A stretch of DNA of 64,000 bases from Bacillota bacterium. GTDB lineage: Bacteria > Bacillota_E > JAJZYS01 > JAJYTV01. The position numbers and the translations under genes are program-made. A model generated the notes under the pieces. That model was not told the origin of the DNA, ran no database searches, and was given only the letters and a program-made list of their open reading frames with translations. Positions 18,759-51,576 of this stretch are shown one piece after another; position 1 is the stretch's first letter, and every line of letters starts with the position of its first letter. Location: assembly GCA_021845645.1 (NCBI GenBank), contig JAJZVM010000010.1:43477-107476 (forward strand), in the 5' to 3' direction.

Positions 18759-20159
18759 GTGTCCCAGGCGACGGAGGCGACATGGCTCGAGGACGTGCTC
18801 GCGCAAGAGCACCTGTTCCAGAGCCGGCGCCGCCCGGCACCGCCCGGCCAGCGCGTCAGCTGGCGCATCGGCACGAGCGTCATGCCCCTGAGCCAGACGC
18901 AGCGGCTGCGCCTGAGAGAGATCGGAGAGGACCTCTGGTCCTTCGCCCTGGCGCAGCAGGAGATCTATCACCAGAGCTTGCGCAGGCCTGAGCTGCGCTT
19001 CGTCGCTGACTACCTCGACGAGGGCAAGCCAGAGGACCTCCTGCGCTTCAGCCAGATGCGGCGCCTGCGCAGACAGCTGCCGGCGTTCATCCGGCCTGAT
19101 CTGCTCGTCGTGCCGGGCGACGACTTCATCGCGACAGAGATCGACTCCGTGCCCGGCGGCTTCGGCGAGCTGGCGGCCCTGCAGGACGTCTACGCCGCCC
19201 TCGGCCAGGACGTCCTTGGCGGTCCGAGCGGCGTCCTCGACGGCTTCCTCCGGGCGCTGGCCCTGACGGCCGGCAAGGAGGAGCCCGTCGTCGCCATCGT
19301 CGTCTCGCAGGAGTCCGACGACTACCGCCCGGAGATGGAGCATGTCGCCCTGGCACTGCGCGCCCGTGGTCATCAAGTGTACTGCGCGCATCCGAAGGAC
19401 GTCGTGTTCCAGGAGGACGGCCTGTACGTGGACTCCCGCCGGATCGACGTGCTCTACCGGTTCTTCGAGCTGTTCGACCTGCGGAACGTGCCGAAGGCGG
19501 ACCTCTTCCTCTACGCGCAGCGCAAGGAACTCGTGCAGATCACGCCGCCCGTGAAGCCGCAGCTCGAGGAGAAACTCTGGTTCGCGCTGCTGCACCATCC
19601 GGTGCTCGAGCCGCTCTGGCGCGAGCAGCTCGGCCCTGAGCGCCTCCTGCGCCTCCTGCGCCTCATCCCCGAGACCTACATCCTCGACCCGCGGCCAGTG
19701 CCGCCGCATGCGGTGGTGGCCGGCCTGCAGGCCTGCGGGCACCCGCTGCAGGACATGCACCGGCTCGGCGACATGGGCAAGCGCGAGCGCGCGGACTGGG
19801 TCCTGAAGCCCTCGGGCTTCTCGGCGATGGCCTGGGGCAGCCGCGGCGTGCACATCGGCGAGGACACGCCGCAGGATGCCTGGCAGCTGGCCGTCGCGCA
19901 GGCGCTGTCGGACTTCCCCCACACGCGCTGGGTGCTGCAGCGCTACCACAAGGCGAAGGTGCTGCGCCACGACTACTTCGACTTCAGTTCGGGCGAGGTC
20001 ATGGCGATGGCGGGCCGTGCCCGCCTCTGCCCGTACTACTTCCGCCAGGGCGATGGCGTCGAACTCGGCGGTGTCCTGGCGACGATCTGCCCGCAGGACA
20101 AGAAGGTCATCCACGGCATGGTCGATGCGATCATGGTGCCGGCCGGAGCCGCGTTCTAG
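18759..20159 (+). CDS. Uncharacterised ATP-grasp-like protein (glutathionylspermidine synthase-type fold, tentative)
   Basis: A 466-residue protein I cannot assign to a named family with certainty. Its layout suggests an ATP-grasp carboxylate-amine ligase: an N-terminal block with RPDLLVVPGDDFIATEIDSV and PGGFGELAALQDVY, a middle Rossmann-like segment (PVVAIVVSQESDDYRPEM, DVLYRFFELFDL), and a C-terminal block starting WVLKPSGFSAMAWGSRGV that would bind ATP. These resemble circularly permuted ATP-grasp and glutathionylspermidine synthase-type proteins, which ligate amines to carboxylates. GTG 18759 follows GGGGGAGGCGG. It shares its stop codon bases with the convergent helicase gene (CTAG, 20156-20159). 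Function is unknown. Confidence 0.55.
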   Translation: MSQATEATWLEDVLAQEHLFQSRRRPAPPGQRVSWRIGTSVMPLSQTQRLRLREIGEDLWSFALAQQEIYHQSLRRPELRFVADYLDEGKPEDLLRFSQMRRLRRQLPAFIRPDLLVVPGDDFIATEIDSVPGGFGELAALQDVYAALGQDVLGGPSGVLDGFLRALALTAGKEEPVVAIVVSQESDDYRPEMEHVALALRARGHQVYCAHPKDVVFQEDGLYVDSRRIDVLYRFFELFDLRNVPKADLFLYAQRKELVQITPPVKPQLEEKLWFALLHHPVLEPLWREQLGPERLLRLLRLIPETYILDPRPVPPHAVVAGLQACGHPLQDMHRLGDMGKRERADWVLKPSGFSAMAWGSRGVHIGEDTPQDAWQLAVAQALSDFPHTRWVLQRYHKAKVLRHDYFDFSSGEVMAMAGRARLCPYYFRQGDGVELGGVLATICPQDKKVIHGMVDAIMVPAGAAF

Positions 20160-23100
20160 CAGTCCCGGCAGCCGTTGCCGGACCCTGTGGCCCGGTCTGC
20201 CGCCGCGACCGCTTGGCGGTAGACCTCGAGGGCGCGCCTGATCTCGCCGCCGCGGTCGGCGGCCCAGTCGCCCGCAAAGATTCTGTGGTAGCGCCAGCCG
20301 AGCAGCTCGAGCTGGCGCCGCCTGTCGTACTCCCGCTCCGACGGCGGCGCATGCCGCTCCAAGCCGTCGCAGGAGATGGCGAGCAGATACTCCCCGGGCC
20401 TGTCGGGATGCCTGGCCGCGAGGTCCATGCGATGGCGCAGGGACCCGTACTGCGGCACGCAGTCGATGCCTGCCTGCCGCAGGGCGCCGCACACCTCTTC
20501 CACGAAGAGCGAGATTCCCTGCTCCAGCGGATTCACCGGCTCGTCCGTGAGCTCCGCCGCCATCTGGCGCCCGTGGCGCATCGCGGCGAACTGCAGGAAG
20601 TGGCGCAGCAGGCCGGAACCCGGGCCGCGGCAGCTCTCCTCGGCGATGTCCTCATAGCCGCAGGCGGAGACGACGGTCATCCGCCTGCGCGCCCGCGTGA
20701 TCGCGACGTTCAGTCGCCGCTCGCCGAGCGCGCCCTCGAACGGTCCGACCTGCCACAGGCCGCCGCCTTCGCCCGGCCTGTCGAAGCCGAGCGCCAGGAT
20801 CACGGCGTCCCGCTCGTCGCCCTGCACGAGGTCGAGAGGCTTGACGAAGAAGCGCTCGCTCCTTGCGCGATCGAAGAAGCTCGCGACATCCTGGCGCCCG
20901 GCGACGGCACGCTCCACGGCCGCCAGGATCCTTTGCGCATGGTCGAGGTCGCAGGCGATCACCCCGAGGGATTCCTGCCGGCGCTCCTCCGCATGCCGCA
21001 GGACGAGGTCCGCGACGGCCTGCGCCTCGGCGTCGGCCGCGCTTGCCGTGCCGCCGCCCTCGCCGGCCTGGCTGCTCACCACGACATGCGTCAGGCCCGC
21101 CCCGTGTCCCTGCCGTCCGGGGAAGGTCATGACCGCATCCTGGTAGATGTGGCGGTTCGAGAACGCGAAGAGCGCCTCGTCAAGGCTGCGATAGTGCCAG
21201 CCGAGCCTGTAGGCCGGCAGGAACGCGAGGCCGTCGAGAACGCTCGCCGCGTCCCGCTGCGCCGGACCCGGTCCTTCCAGGGCGAGGTCCCCCGGCGGCA
21301 GCTGTCGCGGGTCGCCCGCGAGGACCAGCCGTGATGCCCTGAGGATCGCCGGGATCGCCGCCTCCGCCGGCAACTGGCTCGCCTCGTCGACGATGACGAC
21401 GTCGAAGTGCCTGCGGTCGCCGTCCACGAGACGGCTCACCGCGTAGGGGCTGGCGAGCCAGCAGGGGAAGAGCGCCAGCAGCACGTCGGGAGCTGCCGCC
21501 AGCAGGGCAGGGAGAGGCGTGTTCGCGGCCGCCGCCTGCCGGACGATGGCGGCTTGCCCGGGATGCTCCCCAAACGCCGCCGCCACCCGCCGCGCATGGG
21601 CGATGCGCACCTGCTCGGCCGCAAGGTCCATCTCTGCCCTCTCGAGGCGGAAGAGCCTCTCCTGCAGCTGGTCGCGGTGCCTGCCCAGAATGCCCGCAAG
21701 CCCCGGCTCCTCGGCCCTGGCGGCGTCGAGGCACGAGGTGAGCCAGAGATACTGGAACGCCTGGGGCCAGAGGGCCGGATCGAGTGCGCAGGCGAAGACC
21801 TCGCCGGCCGCTTGGCTGGCGCCGTGGCGTTCGAGCTCGCGGGTGATCGCAGCCGCGCGCGGGATGCGGTGCGGCGTGGCCGTGTCGTCCGCCAGCCGCC
21901 GCAGAAGACTTCCGGCGTCGGCCAGGGGGAGATCCCCGAACCTCCCGGGGCCCAGCAGGGCGACCAGCTTGAGCAGGGGCGCCCGCAGCGCGTCGACCGC
22001 CGCGAAGAGGGTGTCGCCCTCGGGATGGATCACGGGCTGCGGCGCGCCGACCACGGACCGCCACCGGGCCCCTTGGTCGGCGATGGCCGCCCTGTCCGCC
22101 GCCGCTTCCGCCCCGTCCAGTCCCAGACCCGGATCGCGGCGCAAGGCGCGCAGCGCCTGAGCGACCGCCCGGTGCCTTGGCATCCCGTTCGGGCCGCGGA
22201 AAGGCCGCGGCGGGGAAGCGCCAGGGCCACCCAGCCGGAACACCTCCGGACGGTAGCGGCGCAGGGTTTCGTTGACGCCGAAGAGGATCGCCGCCACCTG
22301 CTCGACCTCGCCAAGCGACGAGGGGCGGACGGACGGCAGGACGGCCTCGAGGTCCCCAAGCGCAGCCAGCATGCGCTGCCATAGGCTGTAGACCCGCAGG
22401 CTGAGGTCCACAGCGGCGATTGCGGCGGTCTCGTCGGGCAGTCGCGCCGCCGCCCACGGCGAGCTGGGATCAGGGCCGAGGAGCGCCCCGAGATCGCGCG
22501 CGCCGGCCAGGAGGATCTCCACATGGCGTGCAGCGGCGGCGCTCATGCCGGCAAGCCCCGGCAGGGGGCGCAGTCCCGCGGTCCGCACGGCCTCGGGCAG
22601 GCGAAGCAGCCGGCTCTGCATGTCGAGCAGGCTCAGACCGGACGGCCCGCGCTCCTGGTGCAGGGCCCGCAGGCTGGACTGGAGCATCTGCCGGGTCTCG
22701 TCCAGGCGCTTGTCGTCGGCCGGCTCGCCCGGCGCAGTCAGGGCCTTGGTCGCGATCGCGTCGGCGATGCGCTCCAGCACCGCCCGGCGGGAGGTCTCCG
22801 CACCCAGGAGATCGAGCGTCAGGTGACCGAGGTCCCGCGCCTCGAGCCGCTGGCGCACGGCGTCGAGCGCTGCGCGCTTCTGGGCCACAAGGAGCACCTT
22901 CTGCCCGTCCGCGACCAGCGCCGCCACGACGTTGGCGATCGTCTGGCTCTTGCCGCTGCCCGGCGGGCCCTCGATCGTACAGCTCTCGCCCCGGCAGACT
23001 GCGTCGACGGCCTGCCGCTGGGTCTGGTCCGCGGGCAGGACGATGCGCCTTCGGCCCCCGTCGCCTGCGACGGCAGGTCCCTGCGGCATGCCCGCACGGT

Positions 23101-23854
23101 CGCGCAGCCGCGCCCTGGCGATGCGGTCACCGGCCAGGGCGGCGATGAGATCGTGGCCCGCCATGGCGTCAGGCCGCAGCCGCAGTTCGTTCAGCAGGTG
23201 GACGTGGTACGAGAGGAAGTGGCCAAGCACGATGCGCTCGTGCAGCGCGAAGCCCGGAACCTCCGCGCCAAGGTCGCGCACGAGCTGCCACAGCCCGTCC
23301 GGCAGCGGCCCACGGGCCCCGTCCGGCGGTCCCAGCGCCTCGAACGAGCGGCGGTAGTCGGTCTCGAGCACATAGGCCAGCACGGGGTTCCACGTGAGCT
23401 CACCCGTGCGCCGGATCGCCCGGGACGGCCCGCTTGCCAGGTCGACGAGCTCCACGGGCAGGAGCACCACCGGCGCGACGGGGGCGGGACCACTCCCCTC
23501 AGGCCGCCACGTGACCATGCCCATCGCGACGTGGAGCCCGTCGACACCCTGTTCCTCCCGGCTCGCAAGGGACAGGTCGGCCAGGCGTCTCGCGTGCTCG
23601 CCGATGCGCTCATGCTCCGGATTTCCGCCAGGCCACGGCGTCACGGTGTCGCCTCGCAAAAGCCTGTCGACTGCGTCCGGGTCAAGACCTGCGAGGTCGA
23701 GCGCGCCGCCCGCACCATCGCCGTAGCGGAGAAGACTGCTACGGCGCGCCGCATCGTCCAGCCGGGCCGTCCAGCTCCGGCTGGCCGCCTGCACCAGGTC
23801 CTCGCGCCGCGGAAGACCGTCCGCAGGCTCGGAGGCCCAATGCCGTGCGCCCAT
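20156..23854 (-). CDS. SF1 (UPF1/DNA2-like) helicase with C-terminal Vsr-like nuclease domain
   Basis: A 1232-residue protein with the architecture of DUF4011-type defence helicases. The N-terminal part (about 1-280) is the DUF4011-like region. Walker A is IEGPPGSGKSQTIANVV (about 293) and Walker B is VVIVDEASQLPAEAA (about 820), followed by GDPRQLPP, the YRS motif and VAITRARRRMTVV. The last 100 residues (HRMDLAARHPDRPGEYLLAI, then SCDGLERH and LELLGWRYHRIFAGDW) are a very-short-patch-repair/MTES-1575-like nuclease fold; the usual 'IECDG' reads ISCDG, so an acidic residue is lost while Asp remains. Such fusions commonly occur in antiphage loci. ATG 23854 has AAGGGGG upstream. No other defence gene is adjacent. 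Confidence 0.85.
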   Translation of the reverse strand: MGARHWASEPADGLPRREDLVQAASRSWTARLDDAARRSSLLRYGDGAGGALDLAGLDPDAVDRLLRGDTVTPWPGGNPEHERIGEHARRLADLSLASREEQGVDGLHVAMGMVTWRPEGSGPAPVAPVVLLPVELVDLASGPSRAIRRTGELTWNPVLAYVLETDYRRSFEALGPPDGARGPLPDGLWQLVRDLGAEVPGFALHERIVLGHFLSYHVHLLNELRLRPDAMAGHDLIAALAGDRIARARLRDRAGMPQGPAVAGDGGRRRIVLPADQTQRQAVDAVCRGESCTIEGPPGSGKSQTIANVVAALVADGQKVLLVAQKRAALDAVRQRLEARDLGHLTLDLLGAETSRRAVLERIADAIATKALTAPGEPADDKRLDETRQMLQSSLRALHQERGPSGLSLLDMQSRLLRLPEAVRTAGLRPLPGLAGMSAAAARHVEILLAGARDLGALLGPDPSSPWAAARLPDETAAIAAVDLSLRVYSLWQRMLAALGDLEAVLPSVRPSSLGEVEQVAAILFGVNETLRRYRPEVFRLGGPGASPPRPFRGPNGMPRHRAVAQALRALRRDPGLGLDGAEAAADRAAIADQGARWRSVVGAPQPVIHPEGDTLFAAVDALRAPLLKLVALLGPGRFGDLPLADAGSLLRRLADDTATPHRIPRAAAITRELERHGASQAAGEVFACALDPALWPQAFQYLWLTSCLDAARAEEPGLAGILGRHRDQLQERLFRLERAEMDLAAEQVRIAHARRVAAAFGEHPGQAAIVRQAAAANTPLPALLAAAPDVLLALFPCWLASPYAVSRLVDGDRRHFDVVIVDEASQLPAEAAIPAILRASRLVLAGDPRQLPPGDLALEGPGPAQRDAASVLDGLAFLPAYRLGWHYRSLDEALFAFSNRHIYQDAVMTFPGRQGHGAGLTHVVVSSQAGEGGGTASAADAEAQAVADLVLRHAEERRQESLGVIACDLDHAQRILAAVERAVAGRQDVASFFDRARSERFFVKPLDLVQGDERDAVILALGFDRPGEGGGLWQVGPFEGALGERRLNVAITRARRRMTVVSACGYEDIAEESCRGPGSGLLRHFLQFAAMRHGRQMAAELTDEPVNPLEQGISLFVEEVCGALRQAGIDCVPQYGSLRHRMDLAARHPDRPGEYLLAISCDGLERHAPPSEREYDRRRQLELLGWRYHRIFAGDWAADRGGEIRRALEVYRQAVAAADRATGSGNGCRDC

Positions 23855-24186
23855 CCGAAGGCCCCCTTTCGTCCGCCGCCGGCGGGCCGCCTGCAAGCGG
23901 CGAGGCCCGCGACGAGCCCGCTTAGTATGCGCGGGGCCTGTGCGCGTGAGTCGGGCGGCATCGCGCGTCAGAGACCCTTGCCTCCTGCTGGCGAGGGCTG
24001 ACCGCAGTGGCCGCCTCCGTAAGGCGTTCGGCCTGTCGGACGGTCATACGGACCTTCGCGTTGGGCATCCTGTCGCGTGACGCCCGAGCCGCCGCGGCAG
24101 CCGGGCCGGCCGAGCCGGACGGACCGCGCGACGCCGTCCGAGGCTGCCGCCGCACGGCCTGCACACGACCCTCAGGGAGTGGGCCC
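23855..24186. other. Divergent intergenic region upstream of nuoA
   Basis: This stretch separates the helicase (minus) from nuoA (plus) and should hold both promoters, but no convincing -35/-10 pair was seen. One small hairpin, CCCTTGCC/GGCGAGGG with a seven-base loop, lies at 23975-23997. An in-frame extension of nuoA to 24007 has no family resemblance. Confidence 0.5.
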
Positions 24187-45402: not shown

Positions 45403-46707
45403 ATGCCACTCACCCTGCGCCTCGCTACCATGGACGATGCTCGGCTCATCTACGACATCACGCAGCAGTCCTTCGCGGAGTACCGCGGCCTTCTCGACCC
45501 GCCGAGCGGCGCGGAGCGAGAGACTGTGGAGGACGTCGAGCAGACCCTGCGGCAGGGCGGCGCCGCCTTTGCCTCGCTCGACGGCGAGGTCGCGGGCTGC
45601 GTCCGCTATCGGCCTGAGGAAGATGGCATCTACGTCGGCAGACTGGCCGTCCTGCCCGCCATGCGCCACCGAGGTATCGGCTCCGCCCTGCTCGCGCTGG
45701 TCGAGGCGGAGGCCCGTTCCGCGGGTGCCGCCCGCCTGCGGCTGCGCGTGCGCCTGGCCCTGCCGGGCAATGTGCGTCTCTACACCCATCTCGGCTACCG
45801 CGTGACAGCCCTGCACCCTCGCAGCAGGCGCGAGGTCGCATGCACCATGGTCAAGGATCTTGCGCCGCCCGGCGATGAGTCCTTGGTGGACCTGGTCTCT
45901 CCCCTGCTCCCCGACTTACAGCAACTGGAACCCAGCGCGCGCGCCGTGCTTCTCTTCGGCAGCTACGCACACGGGACGCAGGGCCCTTTCAGCGATCTTG
46001 ACCTCTGCATCGTGACGGCAGAGCCGCCAGCAGTGGCCGATCGGCTCCGGCTTCTGCCGCTCCGCCATGGTCTTCTGCCCGTGTCGGTCCATGCCCGTCG
46101 CCTTGCCGACATCGCCGAGGAGGCGGCGGATCCTGACGCGTGGCCGGAGGTGCGGGACATCTATGCACCTGCTCTGCTGCTCTCCGGCCCGGATGCCGTC
46201 CTCGCCGAGATCCGGGCCTGCATCGACGAACGCCGCCCCGATGCGGACGCGCTCTGGCGCACGGCCCAGCACGACATCCTGTCGCTGCTCGAAGCCCTCG
46301 GCAAGGCCAAGAACGCTGCGGCGCGCCTTGAGGCAGCCGCACTCCTCGCAGCCACCGCCCGCGTGGCCGTATGCGCCGCCCGTCTGCTGCGTCCGCTGAA
46401 CCCGCCCTGGCTGGCGCTTCATCCCGCACGTCTGGCCGCCGCCTTCTGCGCGTGGCGCGTCGCGCCGCCCGGGGCGGACCAGGACGCGGCGCTCTGCCTC
46501 GGCTGCGCAGGCGGCGACACGCCCATCTCCCCCACTCTGCTCGCGGCCTTGCGCCTCACCACAGGCACGCTCGAGCTCCTCGCGCCGCACGCGGCCCGCC
46601 TGCCGCTGGAGGCGGGGCTTCGCGACATGCTGCGCGACGGCCGCCTCATGCTGCTCGCGCGGCAGGAGTATGGAAACGGGAACCTGGCGCAGAGCACCAA
46701 GGCATAG
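45403..46707 (+). CDS. GNAT acetyltransferase - minimal nucleotidyltransferase fusion
   Basis: A 434-residue fusion. Residues 1-150 form a GNAT domain (VGRLAVLPAMRHRGIGSALL, then YTHLGYRV). Residues about 170-260 carry a Pol-beta-type nucleotidyltransferase: LLFGSYAHGTQGPFSDLDLC with GS at 186-187 and the metal-binding Asp198 and Asp200. The C-terminal 170 residues are helical (WRTAQHDILSLLEALGKAKN), as in kanamycin-nucleotidyltransferase-like or HEPN partners, but no RxxxxH motif is seen. Possible roles are a resistance-type modifying enzyme or a two-activity regulator. ATG 45403 follows AAGGAGG with good spacing. Its promoter is probably in the AT-rich island upstream. Confidence 0.8.
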   Translation: MPLTLRLATMDDARLIYDITQQSFAEYRGLLDPPSGAERETVEDVEQTLRQGGAAFASLDGEVAGCVRYRPEEDGIYVGRLAVLPAMRHRGIGSALLALVEAEARSAGAARLRLRVRLALPGNVRLYTHLGYRVTALHPRSRREVACTMVKDLAPPGDESLVDLVSPLLPDLQQLEPSARAVLLFGSYAHGTQGPFSDLDLCIVTAEPPAVADRLRLLPLRHGLLPVSVHARRLADIAEEAADPDAWPEVRDIYAPALLLSGPDAVLAEIRACIDERRPDADALWRTAQHDILSLLEALGKAKNAAARLEAAALLAATARVAVCAARLLRPLNPPWLALHPARLAAAFCAWRVAPPGADQDAALCLGCAGGDTPISPTLLAALRLTTGTLELLAPHAARLPLEAGLRDMLRDGRLMLLARQEYGNGNLAQSTKA

Positions 46708-47161: not shown

Positions 47162-47773
47162 TCAGGCTGTGTGCAGTCCCTCGGTGAGAAAGGCCTTGAG
47201 CCGTCTGCGCACGTCATCGCCGTGCGGGCCGTTCAGCAGGGCCTGGTTGTGCGCGTCCCCGGGATACAGGTGGATCATCAGCGGATGCGGGCACATCGCC
47301 TGGAAGGCGCCGATATCTACGTACGGCTCGTCGCGACTCGCGAGAAGCAGCGTCGGCACATGGGGCAGGCGCTCCGCGACCTCCGACGCATCCACCGCCG
47401 GCGAAAGGGCTGCGACGCGATCGACCCGTGCCCCATGCAGGGCCACCGCACGGAGTGCCGCGGCGGCGCCCATGCTGCCGCCCAGGAGGCAGACCTCCTC
47501 CAGGCCCTCGGCCCGCAGCCCCTCCACCGCGCGCACCACGTCGAGATCGTGCGACGCGGGTTGTGGGAGCGGACTCGAGAGGCCGTAGCCGCGAAAGTCG
47601 AGCGTGACGGCGGTCAGGCCCGCCTCGGCGAGTTCCTGCGCTACGTCGTGCCAGCTCGTCTGGTCGAAATGCCGCCCATGCAGGAGAAGCACCGACCGTT
47701 TCCCGCCGCCGAAGCGCGTCCCCGTGAGGCGGCCTCCGTCATCAAGTTCCAAGACCCATTCCTGCTGCGCCAT
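47162..47773 (-). CDS. Alpha/beta hydrolase (dienelactone hydrolase-like)
   Basis: A 203-residue alpha/beta-fold hydrolase. The oxyanion segment is LLLHGRHFDQTSWHDVA, the nucleophile elbow GGSMGAAAAL holds the serine, Asp is in ASRDEPYVDI and His in PGDAHNQALL, completing a Ser-Asp-His triad. ATG 47773 has AGGAGGAGG upstream. It follows the FrnE gene by 14 bases on the same strand, suggesting a two-gene operon. The substrate is unknown. Confidence 0.88.
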   Translation of the reverse strand: MAQQEWVLELDDGGRLTGTRFGGGKRSVLLLHGRHFDQTSWHDVAQELAEAGLTAVTLDFRGYGLSSPLPQPASHDLDVVRAVEGLRAEGLEEVCLLGGSMGAAAALRAVALHGARVDRVAALSPAVDASEVAERLPHVPTLLLASRDEPYVDIGAFQAMCPHPLMIHLYPGDAHNQALLNGPHGDDVRRRLKAFLTEGLHTA

Positions 47774-47787
47774 GCCGCCTCCTCCTC

Positions 47788-48408
47788 TCAGTCCGCGGCG
47801 ACTGCGATCTGCCGCAGCGCGTCGCGCAGTGCCTCAAACGGAAGCGCGCCGACCATTTTGTACTTGCCCTCGACGATGAAGGTCGGCACACCTGTGATGC
47901 CCAGGTCGCGGGCGTGCTGCAGGGCGGCATCCACCACCGCCAGGTAGCGCGGGTCACCGAGGGCGGCCAGGGCCTCTTCGGGGTCGAGTCCGGCGCGCTG
48001 CGCCATCTCCCGCAGGACCTCGCCATCCGCAAGGTTCAGCCCCTCGGCGAAGTACGCCTGGAAGAGCGCCCTGTGCAGCGGCTCGAGCCTGCCCTTCTCG
48101 CGTGCGTACTCCGAGAGGATGTGCGCCTTGCGCGTGTTGCAGATGATATCCGGCGACCGGAACGGCATGCCGAGCTCCGCGGCACGGGAACGCACCCCTT
48201 CCTGCCTGGAGGCGACGTCCTCCTTGGGCACGCCGAAGTACTCGGCAAGCGGCAGTCCCTCCTCGGGCGTGTCGTCGTTCAGCTCGAAGGGACGCCAGTG
48301 CACGTCGAGGTCCAGGTCGGGCTGCTCCATCAACTTGTCGACGAGGCCCTCGCCGATGTAGCAGAAGGGTCAGACATAATCCGAAAAGATGTCGAGGCGC
48401 AACGTCAC
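47788..48408 (-). CDS. FrnE/DsbA-family thiol oxidoreductase, probable selenoprotein (in-frame UGA)
   Basis: A FrnE-type DsbA oxidoreductase of 206 residues if UGA 48372-48370 is read as selenocysteine. The N-terminus then reads TLRLDIFSDYV-U-PFCYIGEG; homologues have C-P-F-C there, so UGA replaces exactly the first, nucleophilic cysteine of the CxxC site. Upstream coding continues to GTG 48408, which has GAGGTGA six bases before it, and downstream the same frame runs to the normal C-terminus (GVPTFIVEGKYKMVGALPFE contains the cis-Pro loop). A hairpin at 48338-48356 fits a SECIS. If UGA stopped translation, only 12 residues would be made; TTG 48333 could restart a protein lacking the active site. 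A sequencing error is the main alternative. Confidence 0.82.
48338..48356 (-). promoter_or_regulatory. Candidate bacterial SECIS hairpin downstream of the UGA codon
   Basis: In the mRNA, UCGGCGAG and CUCGUCGA pair over eight positions (one G-U) around a GGC loop. The loop starts 21 nt after the UGA and begins with two guanosines, matching the usual bacterial SECIS spacing and loop preference. A short CUU/AAG stem can close the base. It lies within the coding region, as bacterial SECIS elements do. Confidence 0.6.
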
Positions 48409-48837
48409 GCAGCGTCACCTCATCTTCCTGCCGCGCCACGATCCCATACGCGGCAATCGCACCGGCCCGCCCATCTCGCTGCCCGGGCGAGCAGAGTGCC
48501 ACATCGAGTATACCGCGCGACAGCTGCGCGCTGGACGAGACCTGGGTCCGTGCGGGCTGGCGGCTCTCCACCACCCTTAGCTCAGGCCGCCGCCCAACGG
48601 CTGAGGCGGGAGCCCGTTTCCCTCCACCGGCACACCGTGGCCGGCACGGCCGTTCCTGGGCAACGCACGCTCCGACCTGACCGGGTCACCGTCCCTTGGC
48701 ATCGTCCCTCTGCGCGACGGGCCCTCGTCTCCCCGTCAGCGCATCTGCCACGCCTTTCCGCAAACGTGAGCCTTCAGGTTAACTTAAGGATGGCTCCAGT
48801 AATTTCTAGGGGAGTCCCCGCGAAGGAGGTCCCTCCT
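48409..48837. other. Intergenic region upstream of the surface-protein gene
   Basis: About 430 bases between the divergent FrnE gene and the gene at 48838. No coding frame is credible. It contains GTTAACTTAAGG near 48778 and, just before the start codon, a GGGG-AGT-CCCC inverted repeat (about 48809-48819) and the Shine-Dalgarno hairpin at 48824-48837. No clear promoter pair was found. Confidence 0.5.
48824..48837 (+). promoter_or_regulatory. Shine-Dalgarno sequence paired with its own spacer
   Basis: AGGAGG (48824-48829), TC, CCTCCT (48832-48837) directly before GTG 48838. The whole spacer is the reverse complement of the ribosome site, so a closed helix would hide it. A two-base loop is too tight for the innermost pair, leaving about four or five pairs. 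Confidence 0.5.
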
Positions 48838-49502: not shown

Positions 49503-51428
49503 TTAGCTGATCTGCTTCCAGAGCCTCCCCGTGTCATGTGTCACAAGGACCCTCCCGTCGTACGTCGTGATGAACGCCTCGCTCGGACCAATGGGAGTCA
49601 AGCCGGCGATGTTGATCTGGTTATCCGGCCACGCTGTAACGTGCGTGGGTTTTCCAGGCGCAAGAACGTAGAGTCTGCCGTTCGGATACCCGGACAGGGC
49701 GATCCAGAGGCTCTCGCCACCAGAGGCGACCGTCGAGACATAGTAGCCCTGACTCTGTAGGGTCTTGGACGCCAGGCGGCGGATCAACTGGATGGCCACC
49801 TGGGCGAGCGCTGGATCCTTGAGCGAGACGGCGCAGACGGCGGCGGGAACCCCCTGCAGTTCAGCACGGCGCCATGTCGTTCCACCGTCGCGGGTTGCGT
49901 AGTCAATTTCTCCTTGACCATATCCGCTGGTCGCGCAGCCGGTCTTCGAGGTAGCGAAGCTTATGGCGTTGGTTGACGACGAGCCCGCGGCGGTATGCGC
50001 TAGGGACCATCTGCTACCGCCCTGCGTCCCTACGTACACTGCCCCGTCGTCCACCACGAAGAGCCTGCCTCCCTGCGCCGCGGCAAACCCAGTCGGAGGG
50101 TTCGTAGCCTGCGGCAGCAGTCCGGCCGGTTGCCAACTCGTCCCGCCATCTAGTGTCTTCAGCAGGGCCACGAGGTCTCCGGAGGTGCCGAGACCGAAGC
50201 CGATGCGGGTGGTGACGAACGCCGTGAACAACTGGGGTGCCGCTGGCACAACATGAAGGACCGTGCGCCAGCTGGCGCCGCCGTTGGTAGTCTTGCGGAT
50301 CTCCGACTGTCCTCCACCGGTTCCCGGACTTGAGAGGAGCCAGCCGTCCTTTGCGGTCACCATGTCCAAGGTGAACGGTGCCGCCGTCTGCAGAGGAATT
50401 GCCGCCGTGGACGACGTCCAGGTGGAGCCGCCGTCGGTCGTGCTAGAGAACGCCACGTTGCCCTCGTTGCAGGCTTCACAGGTGCCCGCCATCGTCGCGG
50501 TCGTCGCGGATAGCGCGCTGAGGGGGCCCGGGGAGGAGCCGGGACCCTTGGCCACACCCGCTGTATTGCCCGGCGCAGGCCCAGAGCCAGCCGTCGAGAC
50601 CGCGATGACCGGCTTCCACGACGCTCCTTGATCAGCGCTGCGGAAGACCGTATAGGACTGCTGGCTCATGCTCGCCTGGCTGGTGGCGACCAGCCACGCA
50701 CCGCCGTCCGGCGTGCACTGCAGCTGCTCGGGCGTGGGGCCCTTGACAGATAGCACGGTGTCCCAGTTCGCCCCGCCGTCGGTGGTCCGCTCCACTTCGA
50801 GGGTGCCGCCGAAGCTGTTAGGGAGCGTGGCGATGCCAGTGTCGGCTCCATAGAAGCAGGCCTGCGCTACGGGGCCGATCGCCAAAGGGCGCCAGGACCC
50901 GCCGCCATCGCTGGTCGCGAGGAGCTTGTGCAATAAGGGGTAGGACTGTCCCTCCAGAGCAAACCCCTCCGCCGAGTTCACGAACTGCACTTGGTAGAGG
51001 GACTGCCGGTCGACTCGGCTCCACGTCGTACCATCCGTGGTCTTCAGGAGGCCCGAGCTCGACGCTGCGTATCCGAGCTTGGGTGAGAGAAACGAGAAGC
51101 CCGTCACGTTGCCCGCGCCAAGGTATTGACGGCCCCAGGACTCACCGCCATCCGATGTGGCCAGGATGACGCCCTGGCCGCCCGCCCAACCGACCTGTGC
51201 GTTCACGAAATCCAACGAGGTGAGATGCGGAGGGGCGCCTGGCAGTAGTGTCACGGATGTCGTCTGAGGCTTGATGCGCAAGAGTTGCTCAAGACTCACG
51301 GGTTTGGACACAGGCTTCACAGCAGCGCCGGCGCAGCCCGCGAGCAGCATGCCCACCGCCAGCGGAGCAACAAGCCGGTGGAGCCTAGCGCTCGATCCCA
51401 CCGAAGTCACGACGCTCGCCCGGTGCAC
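49503..51428 (-). CDS. Lipoprotein with YCF48/BNR-type beta-propeller repeats
   Basis: A 641-residue surface lipoprotein. The signal peptide ends in the lipobox LLAGC with Cys32 when GTG 51428 is used (GAGAGGGG seven bases upstream). The rest is a chain of sialidase/YCF48-like repeats containing the Asp-box form 'TSDGGESW', 'TTDGTTWS', 'TTDGGANWDT', 'TTDGGSTWTS', 'TTNGGASWRT' and 'TLDGGTSWQP', each preceded by a V/F-x-F..x-x-x-G(Y/F)A strand. At least nine such blades are visible, and the last pair closes at the C-terminus (VTHDTGRLWKQIS). Such propellers usually bind partners outside the membrane; no enzyme activity is predicted. It belongs to the surface island together with the genes at 51577, 54518 and 57220. 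Confidence 0.85.
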   Translation of the reverse strand: MHRASVVTSVGSSARLHRLVAPLAVGMLLAGCAGAAVKPVSKPVSLEQLLRIKPQTTSVTLLPGAPPHLTSLDFVNAQVGWAGGQGVILATSDGGESWGRQYLGAGNVTGFSFLSPKLGYAASSSGLLKTTDGTTWSRVDRQSLYQVQFVNSAEGFALEGQSYPLLHKLLATSDGGGSWRPLAIGPVAQACFYGADTGIATLPNSFGGTLEVERTTDGGANWDTVLSVKGPTPEQLQCTPDGGAWLVATSQASMSQQSYTVFRSADQGASWKPVIAVSTAGSGPAPGNTAGVAKGPGSSPGPLSALSATTATMAGTCEACNEGNVAFSSTTDGGSTWTSSTAAIPLQTAAPFTLDMVTAKDGWLLSSPGTGGGQSEIRKTTNGGASWRTVLHVVPAAPQLFTAFVTTRIGFGLGTSGDLVALLKTLDGGTSWQPAGLLPQATNPPTGFAAAQGGRLFVVDDGAVYVGTQGGSRWSLAHTAAGSSSTNAISFATSKTGCATSGYGQGEIDYATRDGGTTWRRAELQGVPAAVCAVSLKDPALAQVAIQLIRRLASKTLQSQGYYVSTVASGGESLWIALSGYPNGRLYVLAPGKPTHVTAWPDNQINIAGLTPIGPSEAFITTYDGRVLVTHDTGRLWKQIS

Positions 51429-51576
51429 GACGACACCCCTCTCGGCCGATCCGCCTCTGGTCGCTGCCCATGACCAGCAACCTTGTCGGGTATTGTGCGT
51501 GATGCCTCGAGTCTCCAATCTAGGGCATCAGGGCCAACGATCCCGGGGCGAAGGCACCCCCATCCCCGAGGTGCGA

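What the first reader, a model, noticed from the sequence alone, without database searches (positions are those of the whole stretch)
47788..48408. FrnE/DsbA oxidoreductase with UGA at the active-site cysteine: probable selenoprotein
Seen: a continuous gene-like frame with GAGGTGA plus GTG start, homologous residues on both sides, and a single in-frame UGA exactly where the CxxC nucleophile should be, giving U-P-F-C. In the mRNA a hairpin (UCGGCGAG/CUCGUCGA, loop GGC) places its loop 21 nt after UGA. Known: bacterial selenocysteine replaces the N-terminal Cys of thioredoxin-fold CxxC sites, and bacterial SECIS elements lie just downstream of UGA. Inference: this is a selenoprotein, so the organism should encode SelA, SelB, SelD and tRNA-Sec, none of which is in this window.
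Basis: partly seen in the sequence, partly recalled or inferred. Interest (0 to 1): 0.85.

Follow-up and report, generated by a model that had tools for sequence, protein, structure and literature searches.

The report
Selenium-containing FrnE oxidoreductase gene
An uncultured bacterium very probably encodes a FrnE-type thiol-disulfide enzyme whose key active-site cysteine is replaced by selenocysteine, read from an internal UGA codon; it belongs to an already known selenoprotein family whose records are often cut short by gene prediction.

Summary
On the minus strand, GTG at 48408 opens a FrnE (DsbA-family) frame with one in-frame UGA at 48372-48370, exactly at the first position of the U-P-F-C active site. 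Evidence for selenocysteine: (1) Of the 21 best protein hits, 20 are truncated after this site, as expected if their genes carry the same stop (their upstream DNA was not seen). Of 88 public loci aligned at this codon, 58 have TGA and 30 TGC/TGT. (2) In one fixed register a hairpin with its loop 20-21 nt after the UGA keeps at least 6 of 8 pairs in 54 of 59 UGA rows, window included, against 1 of 30 Cys rows, and covaries only in the UGA set. (3) The 5 actinomycete genomes found with the UGA form all have SelB and tRNA-Sec, though these are common in other genomes too. The family is known: "DsbA-like, COG2761, UxxC" (PMC1088965 passage). The window's own genome is not held, so its Sec machinery could not be checked. 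The host looks like an uncultured relative of Thermaerobacter. Verdict: genuine selenoprotein gene, new member of a known kind.

The parts
47788..48408 (-). FrnE/DsbA-family oxidoreductase gene, 206 residues with Sec at residue 13
   Evidence: frame open except for one TGA
48370..48372 (-). in-frame UGA, inferred to be read as selenocysteine (U13 of U-P-F-C)
   Evidence: aligned with TGA in 58 and Cys in 30 of 88 loci
48361..48363 (-). second active-site cysteine codon (C16) of U-P-F-C
48338..48356 (-). bacterial SECIS-like hairpin: stem 48356-48350 with 48344-48338, loop GGGCC 48349-48345 (its outer G and C can pair, leaving loop GGC)
48415..48421 (-). Shine-Dalgarno-like GAGGTGA, six bases before GTG
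47884..47886 (-). Pro175 codon (position of the cis-Pro loop of thioredoxin folds, GVPTF)
   Evidence: invariant in the 26 rows; the name cis-Pro is recalled
47162..47773 (-). alpha/beta hydrolase gene, 14 bases downstream, possibly the same transcript
   Evidence: no match (E up to 1e-3) in the fetched loci, most of which reach only a few kb or less beyond FrnE

Best explanation
The gene encodes a FrnE-subfamily (DsbA-fold) thiol-disulfide oxidoreductase, probably cytosolic, with active site Sec-Pro-Phe-Cys. During translation the hairpin just after the UGA (the SECIS) is bound by SelB carrying Sec-tRNA-Sec, and UGA is read as selenocysteine instead of stop. Sec13 then acts as attacking nucleophile with Cys16 as resolving thiol, in disulfide reduction or isomerisation. 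Shown: frame, UGA at the catalytic position, conserved and covarying hairpin, UGA/Cys alternation, protein family. Inferred: Sec insertion itself, Sec machinery in this host, cytosolic location, direction of the redox reaction.
For: Frame and site. 20 of the 21 best protein hits are 139-182 aa and begin after the active site; P0002, 99% identical over the shared part and from a 1,217-base contig, begins at the same internal ATG. TGA at this codon in 58 of 88 loci, Cys in 30. Fixed-register hairpin: at least 6 of 8 pairs in 54 of 59 UGA rows (window 7 of 8), against 1 of 30 Cys rows. Covariation score 0.511 in UGA rows (shuffle mean 0.219, 0 of 500 as high; slid versions 0.05-0.25) against 0.105 in Cys rows (shuffle mean 0.140, 495 of 500 as high). 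RNAalifold predicts the inner five pairs of the stem in the UGA set and no pair in the Cys set. Stability against synonymous-codon shuffles: mean z -1.22 in 26 UGA rows, -0.07 in 20 Cys rows, one-sided Mann-Whitney p 9e-5. SelB and tRNA-Sec in 5 of 5 actinomycete UGA genomes. In a tree the window lies in a group of 22 rows (support 99/97): the window, the TGA locus L084 and the 20 truncated proteins, no row with a visible Cys. UGA also ends genes here: FrnE itself and 26 of 51 ORFs picked by composition, some of them doubtful.
Against: The window's genome is not held, so its Sec machinery is unseen; no SelB or tRNA-Sec was found in the window. The DNA upstream of the 20 truncated proteins was not read, so their UGA is inferred. 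Sec machinery does not discriminate well: in the phylum of Desulfacinum SelB is over the cut-off in 49 of 52 UGA genomes, 10 of 13 Cys genomes and 13 of 15 genomes without a match; in actinomycetes in 5 of 5 UGA genomes and 11 of 18 others. L006's genome has the TGA gene but no tRNA-Sec over the cut-off. The window hairpin alone is only z -1.01 / -1.98. A loose hairpin criterion (4 pairs, G in the first two loop bases) is met by 22 of 26 UGA rows but also by 11 of 20 Cys rows, and in several UGA rows the single-sequence minimum-energy fold is another pairing. Two of the five covariation measures are less extreme: pairs with changes on both sides (26 of 500 shuffles as high) and further pair types (30 of 500). 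The rows are related, so counts are not independent events.
Confidence: 0.95

Rival explanations
1. Pseudogene or sequencing error: a Cys codon TGC/TGT became TGA by chance and the gene makes only a 12-residue stub.
For: One base separates TGC/TGT from TGA; own-genome Sec machinery unseen.
Against: The same TGA in 58 loci, truncation of 20 of the 21 best protein hits after the same place, a hairpin that covaries only in TGA genes, an intact frame of 193 codons after the UGA.
Confidence: 0.02
2. A start downstream of the UGA (TTG 48333, or ATG 48330 as in the database protein P0002) makes a true short protein without the catalytic motif.
For: Databases hold such short forms; the ORF listing gives 181 aa from 48333.
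Against: The short form lacks the N-terminal part with the whole active site and scores lower with Pfam DSBA, 98 against 131 bits; D-[YF]-x-U-P-[FWY]-C is kept across the UGA in the TGA loci; the covarying stem would have no purpose.
Confidence: 0.02
3. UGA is read as Cys or Trp in this organism by a reassigned code or a suppressor tRNA, not as Sec.
For: None found.
Against: UGA ends this gene and 26 of 51 ORFs picked by composition; a dedicated hairpin follows this UGA; alternation with Cys at the redox residue is the pattern of Sec.
Confidence: 0.01

Closest known systems
DsbA-like selenoprotein (form 1), COG2761 / PF01323, UxxC
   Same: Same domain, same UxxC motif with Sec first, bacterial SECIS downstream; nine Sargasso Sea sequences, and 45 proteins in 41 organisms in a 2016 survey (passages of PMC1088965 and PMC5029168, also PMC9312934 and PMC13188914)
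   Different: Only in taxon as far as seen: a Bacillota lineage near Thermaerobacter; one search for papers with both Thermaerobacter and selenocysteine gave none
FrnE of Deinococcus radiodurans (5cnw) and SCO1869 (3gl5)
   Same: Homology over nearly the whole length and the same active-site position
   Different: They have Cys-Pro-Trp-Cys; D. radiodurans FrnE also has a C-terminal CxxxxC (PMC8945050, passages) that the window protein lacks (its sequence)
TGA-FrnE of Desulfacinum infernum (L009) and of actinomycete genome G473 (L084)
   Same: TGA at the same codon, hairpin in the same register
   Different: 38% and 49.5% identity to the window protein

Membership tests
FrnE subfamily of DsbA proteins | DsbA-like thioredoxin domain over the length of the protein | tested here: met
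   PF01323 131 bits, residues 5-198; FrnE 5cnw E 2e-26
FrnE subfamily of DsbA proteins | CP(W/F)C active site | tested here: met
   U-P-F-C at the aligned site, with UGA for the first Cys
FrnE subfamily of DsbA proteins | C-terminal CxxxxC (present in many, not all members) | tested here: not met
   Absent from the sequence; also absent from S. roseofulvus FrnE (PMC8945050 passage), so not a bar to membership
Bacterial selenoprotein | In-frame UGA at a position held by Cys in homologues | tested here: met
   58 TGA and 30 Cys of 88 loci aligned there
Bacterial selenoprotein | SECIS hairpin just after UGA with G in a small apical loop, kept by covariation | tested here: met
   Cys controls
Bacterial selenoprotein | Host has SelA, SelB, SelD and tRNA-Sec | not testable with these tools
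   Own genome not held; SelB and tRNA-Sec found in 5 of 5 actinomycete genomes with the UGA gene; SelA and SelD not searched anywhere
Bacterial selenoprotein | Sec in the purified protein | not testable with these tools
   Needs labelling or mass spectrometry

The most novel reading that the evidence does not exclude
FrnE in this uncultured Thermaerobacter-like Bacillota group and its kin is an all-Sec subfamily: in its 22-row group the codon is UGA in the two rows where it was seen, and the other 20 records are truncated after it. Selenium use would then be old and kept there, in a lineage for which one literature search found no report of Sec, and hidden because databases hold only the truncated forms.
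Probability: 0.5. Interest if true: 0.4.

Novelty: new member of a known kind. Interest (0 to 1): 0.3.

Why it matters
It adds a well-supported selenoprotein gene in an uncultured Bacillota lineage and implies that the organism uses selenocysteine. It also points to an annotation gap: 20 of the 21 closest database proteins are cut off after the active site, and none of the three NCBIfam models that match the full protein reaches its cut-off, so the catalytic residue is missing from most records of this branch.

Tried and rejected
Own-genome search for tRNA-Sec: no genome held. Scan of viral contigs with alignment A2: 31 pattern matches, no relative. The one genome-contig scan gave 16 loci, none above 39% identity. 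SelB as discriminator in the phylum of Desulfacinum: rejected, since SelB is nearly everywhere there. RF01852 in the genomes of L005, L006, L008, L009 and L014: over the cut-off in 4 of 5, the miss being L006's genome (best 45.4 bits against 47), which has the TGA gene; the genomes of L005 and L014 have it although their FrnE has Cys. Loose hairpin scan (at least 4 pairs, G early in the loop): met by 22 of 26 UGA and 11 of 20 Cys rows, too weak as a criterion. Second selenoprotein in the window: a composition scan listed 7 TGA sites with coding-like flanks; apart from FrnE none shows UxxC or CxxU in the 21 residues printed, and none was pursued. A second FrnE in the window: none. Structure prediction was not run because sequence homology to solved FrnE was enough. 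Papers with FrnE and selenocysteine: 5 listed, none about this family by title and abstract start.

Rows dropped or not seen: L016 did not align at codon 13 and was left out of the counts. Of the 23 actinomycete matches only the ten best were fetched and read at the codon. From the table only the 65 matches of at least 78 bits were used. In the state count on the tree, 5 of 70 rows labelled C were dropped because my motif filter did not match; two of them (P0025, P0047) visibly have a CxxC and one (P0049, 178 aa) is truncated and had been mislabelled C in the tree. The 124 rows kept (59 U, 65 C) need at least 8 changes of state.

Full report
What is there. On the minus strand a GTG at 48408, six bases after GAGGTGA, opens a frame that reads VTLRLDIFSDYV-UGA-PFCYIG and runs to TGA at 47790-47788. 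The product read through the UGA is a DsbA-fold protein (PF01323, 131 bits, residues 5-198) whose nearest solved relatives are FrnE of Deinococcus radiodurans (5cnw, E 2e-26; the organism is recalled) and SCO1869 (3gl5, E 2e-24); their Cys-Pro-Trp-Cys lies over U-P-F-C. The part after the UGA alone scores 98 bits.

Relatives at the protein level. Of the 21 best hits (P0002-P0022), 20 are 139-182 aa long and start after the active site; only P0020 has a complete N-terminus. P0002 is 99% identical over the shared part and starts at the same ATG. This is what gene callers produce when a stop lies at the active site.

Relatives at the DNA level. The genome-contig scan gave 16 loci: L006 (Desulfobacterales), L008 and L009 (Desulfacinum) have TGA exactly at codon 13, 12 have Cys, and L016 does not align there. 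In 297 genomes of the phylum of G002 (the Desulfacinum of L008), 88 have a match at E 0.001; 65 of these have one of at least 78 bits, 52 of them with a TGA inside and 13 without a stop (my count from the table). In 198 genomes of the phylum of G004 (the Rubrobacter of L005), 23 match; the ten best were fetched, the five strongest with TGA (L084-L088), the next five with Cys. All aligned loci together: 58 TGA, 17 TGC, 13 TGT. The best actinomycete, L084, is 49.5% identical to the window protein.

SECIS. The 48 bases from the UGA or Cys codon on align without gaps for the window plus 58 TGA loci and for 30 Cys loci. In one fixed register (8 pairs, loop of five beginning at the 21st base after UGA) at least 6 pairs form in 54 of 59 TGA rows and in 1 of 30 Cys rows. 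The second loop base is G in 56 of 59 TGA rows and 11 of 30 Cys rows (counted). Of the five TGA rows with fewer than 6 pairs, L025 and L046 have a five-pair hairpin at a slightly later place, and L060, L061 and L085 seem to have a shifted one by eye. Covariation in the TGA set: 87.1% of cells paired, 91 cells with both sides changed, score 0.511 against 0.219 in shuffles (0 of 500 as high) and 0.05-0.25 in slid versions; two further measures are less extreme (26 and 30 of 500 shuffles as high). In the Cys set: 45.3% paired, score 0.105, below its shuffles. RNAalifold predicts the inner five pairs in the first set and nothing in the second. Shuffles do not remove relatedness; the slid versions and the Cys set serve as controls for that. 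In the earlier set of 26 TGA and 20 Cys rows the TGA rows are also more stable than synonymous-codon shuffles (mean z -1.22 against -0.07, p 9e-5; window -1.98). A loose hairpin scan does not separate the sets well (22 of 26 against 11 of 20), and by dinucleotide shuffles the window alone is not significant (z -1.01).

Machinery. SelB over the cut-off and tRNA-Sec of at least 65 bits are present in 5 of 5 actinomycete genomes with the TGA gene; of the other 18 genomes 11 have SelB over its cut-off and 11 a tRNA-Sec match over its cut-off. In the phylum of Desulfacinum SelB is over the cut-off in 49 of 52 TGA, 10 of 13 Cys and 13 of 15 unmatched genomes, so it does not discriminate there. Completeness of these genomes is not told. 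The window's own genome is not held; the window has no tRNA, no Rfam match at gathering score and no SelB match better than E 0.076. SelA and SelD were not searched.

Tree. In a maximum-likelihood tree of 149 rows, rooted at the midpoint for drawing only, the window pairs with P0002 and lies in a 22-row group (99/97) made of the window, L084 and the 20 truncated proteins; no row with a visible Cys is inside. With verified states only (59 U, 65 C), at least 8 Sec/Cys changes are needed on this tree, which suggests recurrent exchange in the family.

Host. GC is 69%, and UGA ends 26 of 51 ORFs picked by composition, some of them doubtful, so a general reassignment of UGA is unlikely.

Known or new. 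Passages of PMC1088965 list a DsbA-like selenoprotein, COG2761, UxxC, nine sequences, with a bacterial SECIS; a passage of PMC5029168 lists 45 such proteins in 41 organisms; passages of PMC9312934 and PMC13188914 list the family as PF01323, UxxC; passages of PMC1794560 list DsbA-like selenoproteins for Anaeromyxobacter, Desulfovibrio and Desulfotomaculum, and 12 selenoproteins for Symbiobacterium. That COG2761 is the FrnE group is recalled. The finding is therefore a new member of a known kind. One search for papers with Thermaerobacter and selenocysteine found none.

Function. Passages of PMC8945050 describe FrnE proteins as predicted cytoplasmic oxidoreductases, D. radiodurans FrnE as a proposed disulfide reductase whose C-terminal CxxxxC has a role in regenerating the active site, and other FrnE without that motif. 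The window protein has no evident signal peptide by eye and lacks CxxxxC, so another reductant would have to regenerate it (inference).

Noticed in passing
window 20156-23896, - strand: 1246-aa helicase-like protein whose best NCBIfam matches are anti-phage proteins ProA and Hhe, well below their cut-offs.
   Followed up: no
window 45403-46707, + strand: Apparent fusion of a GNAT acetyltransferase domain with a nucleotidyltransferase resembling the ANT(4') type, well below the NCBIfam cut-off.
   Followed up: no
window 49503-51518, - strand: YCF48/BNR-repeat protein.
   Followed up: no
window 47788-48408, - strand: None of the three NCBIfam models that match the full FrnE protein reaches its cut-off; the nearest is another (seleno)lipoprotein family, NF041057, at 34.6 of 190 bits.
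   Followed up: no
L060, L061 (phylum of Desulfacinum): TGA-FrnE genes whose hairpin seems shifted by about two bases against the common register (sequences), by eye.
   Followed up: partly
genomes G118, G014, G202: Three of 52 genomes with TGA-FrnE lack a SelB match over the cut-off; incomplete assemblies or loss, not resolved.
   Followed up: no
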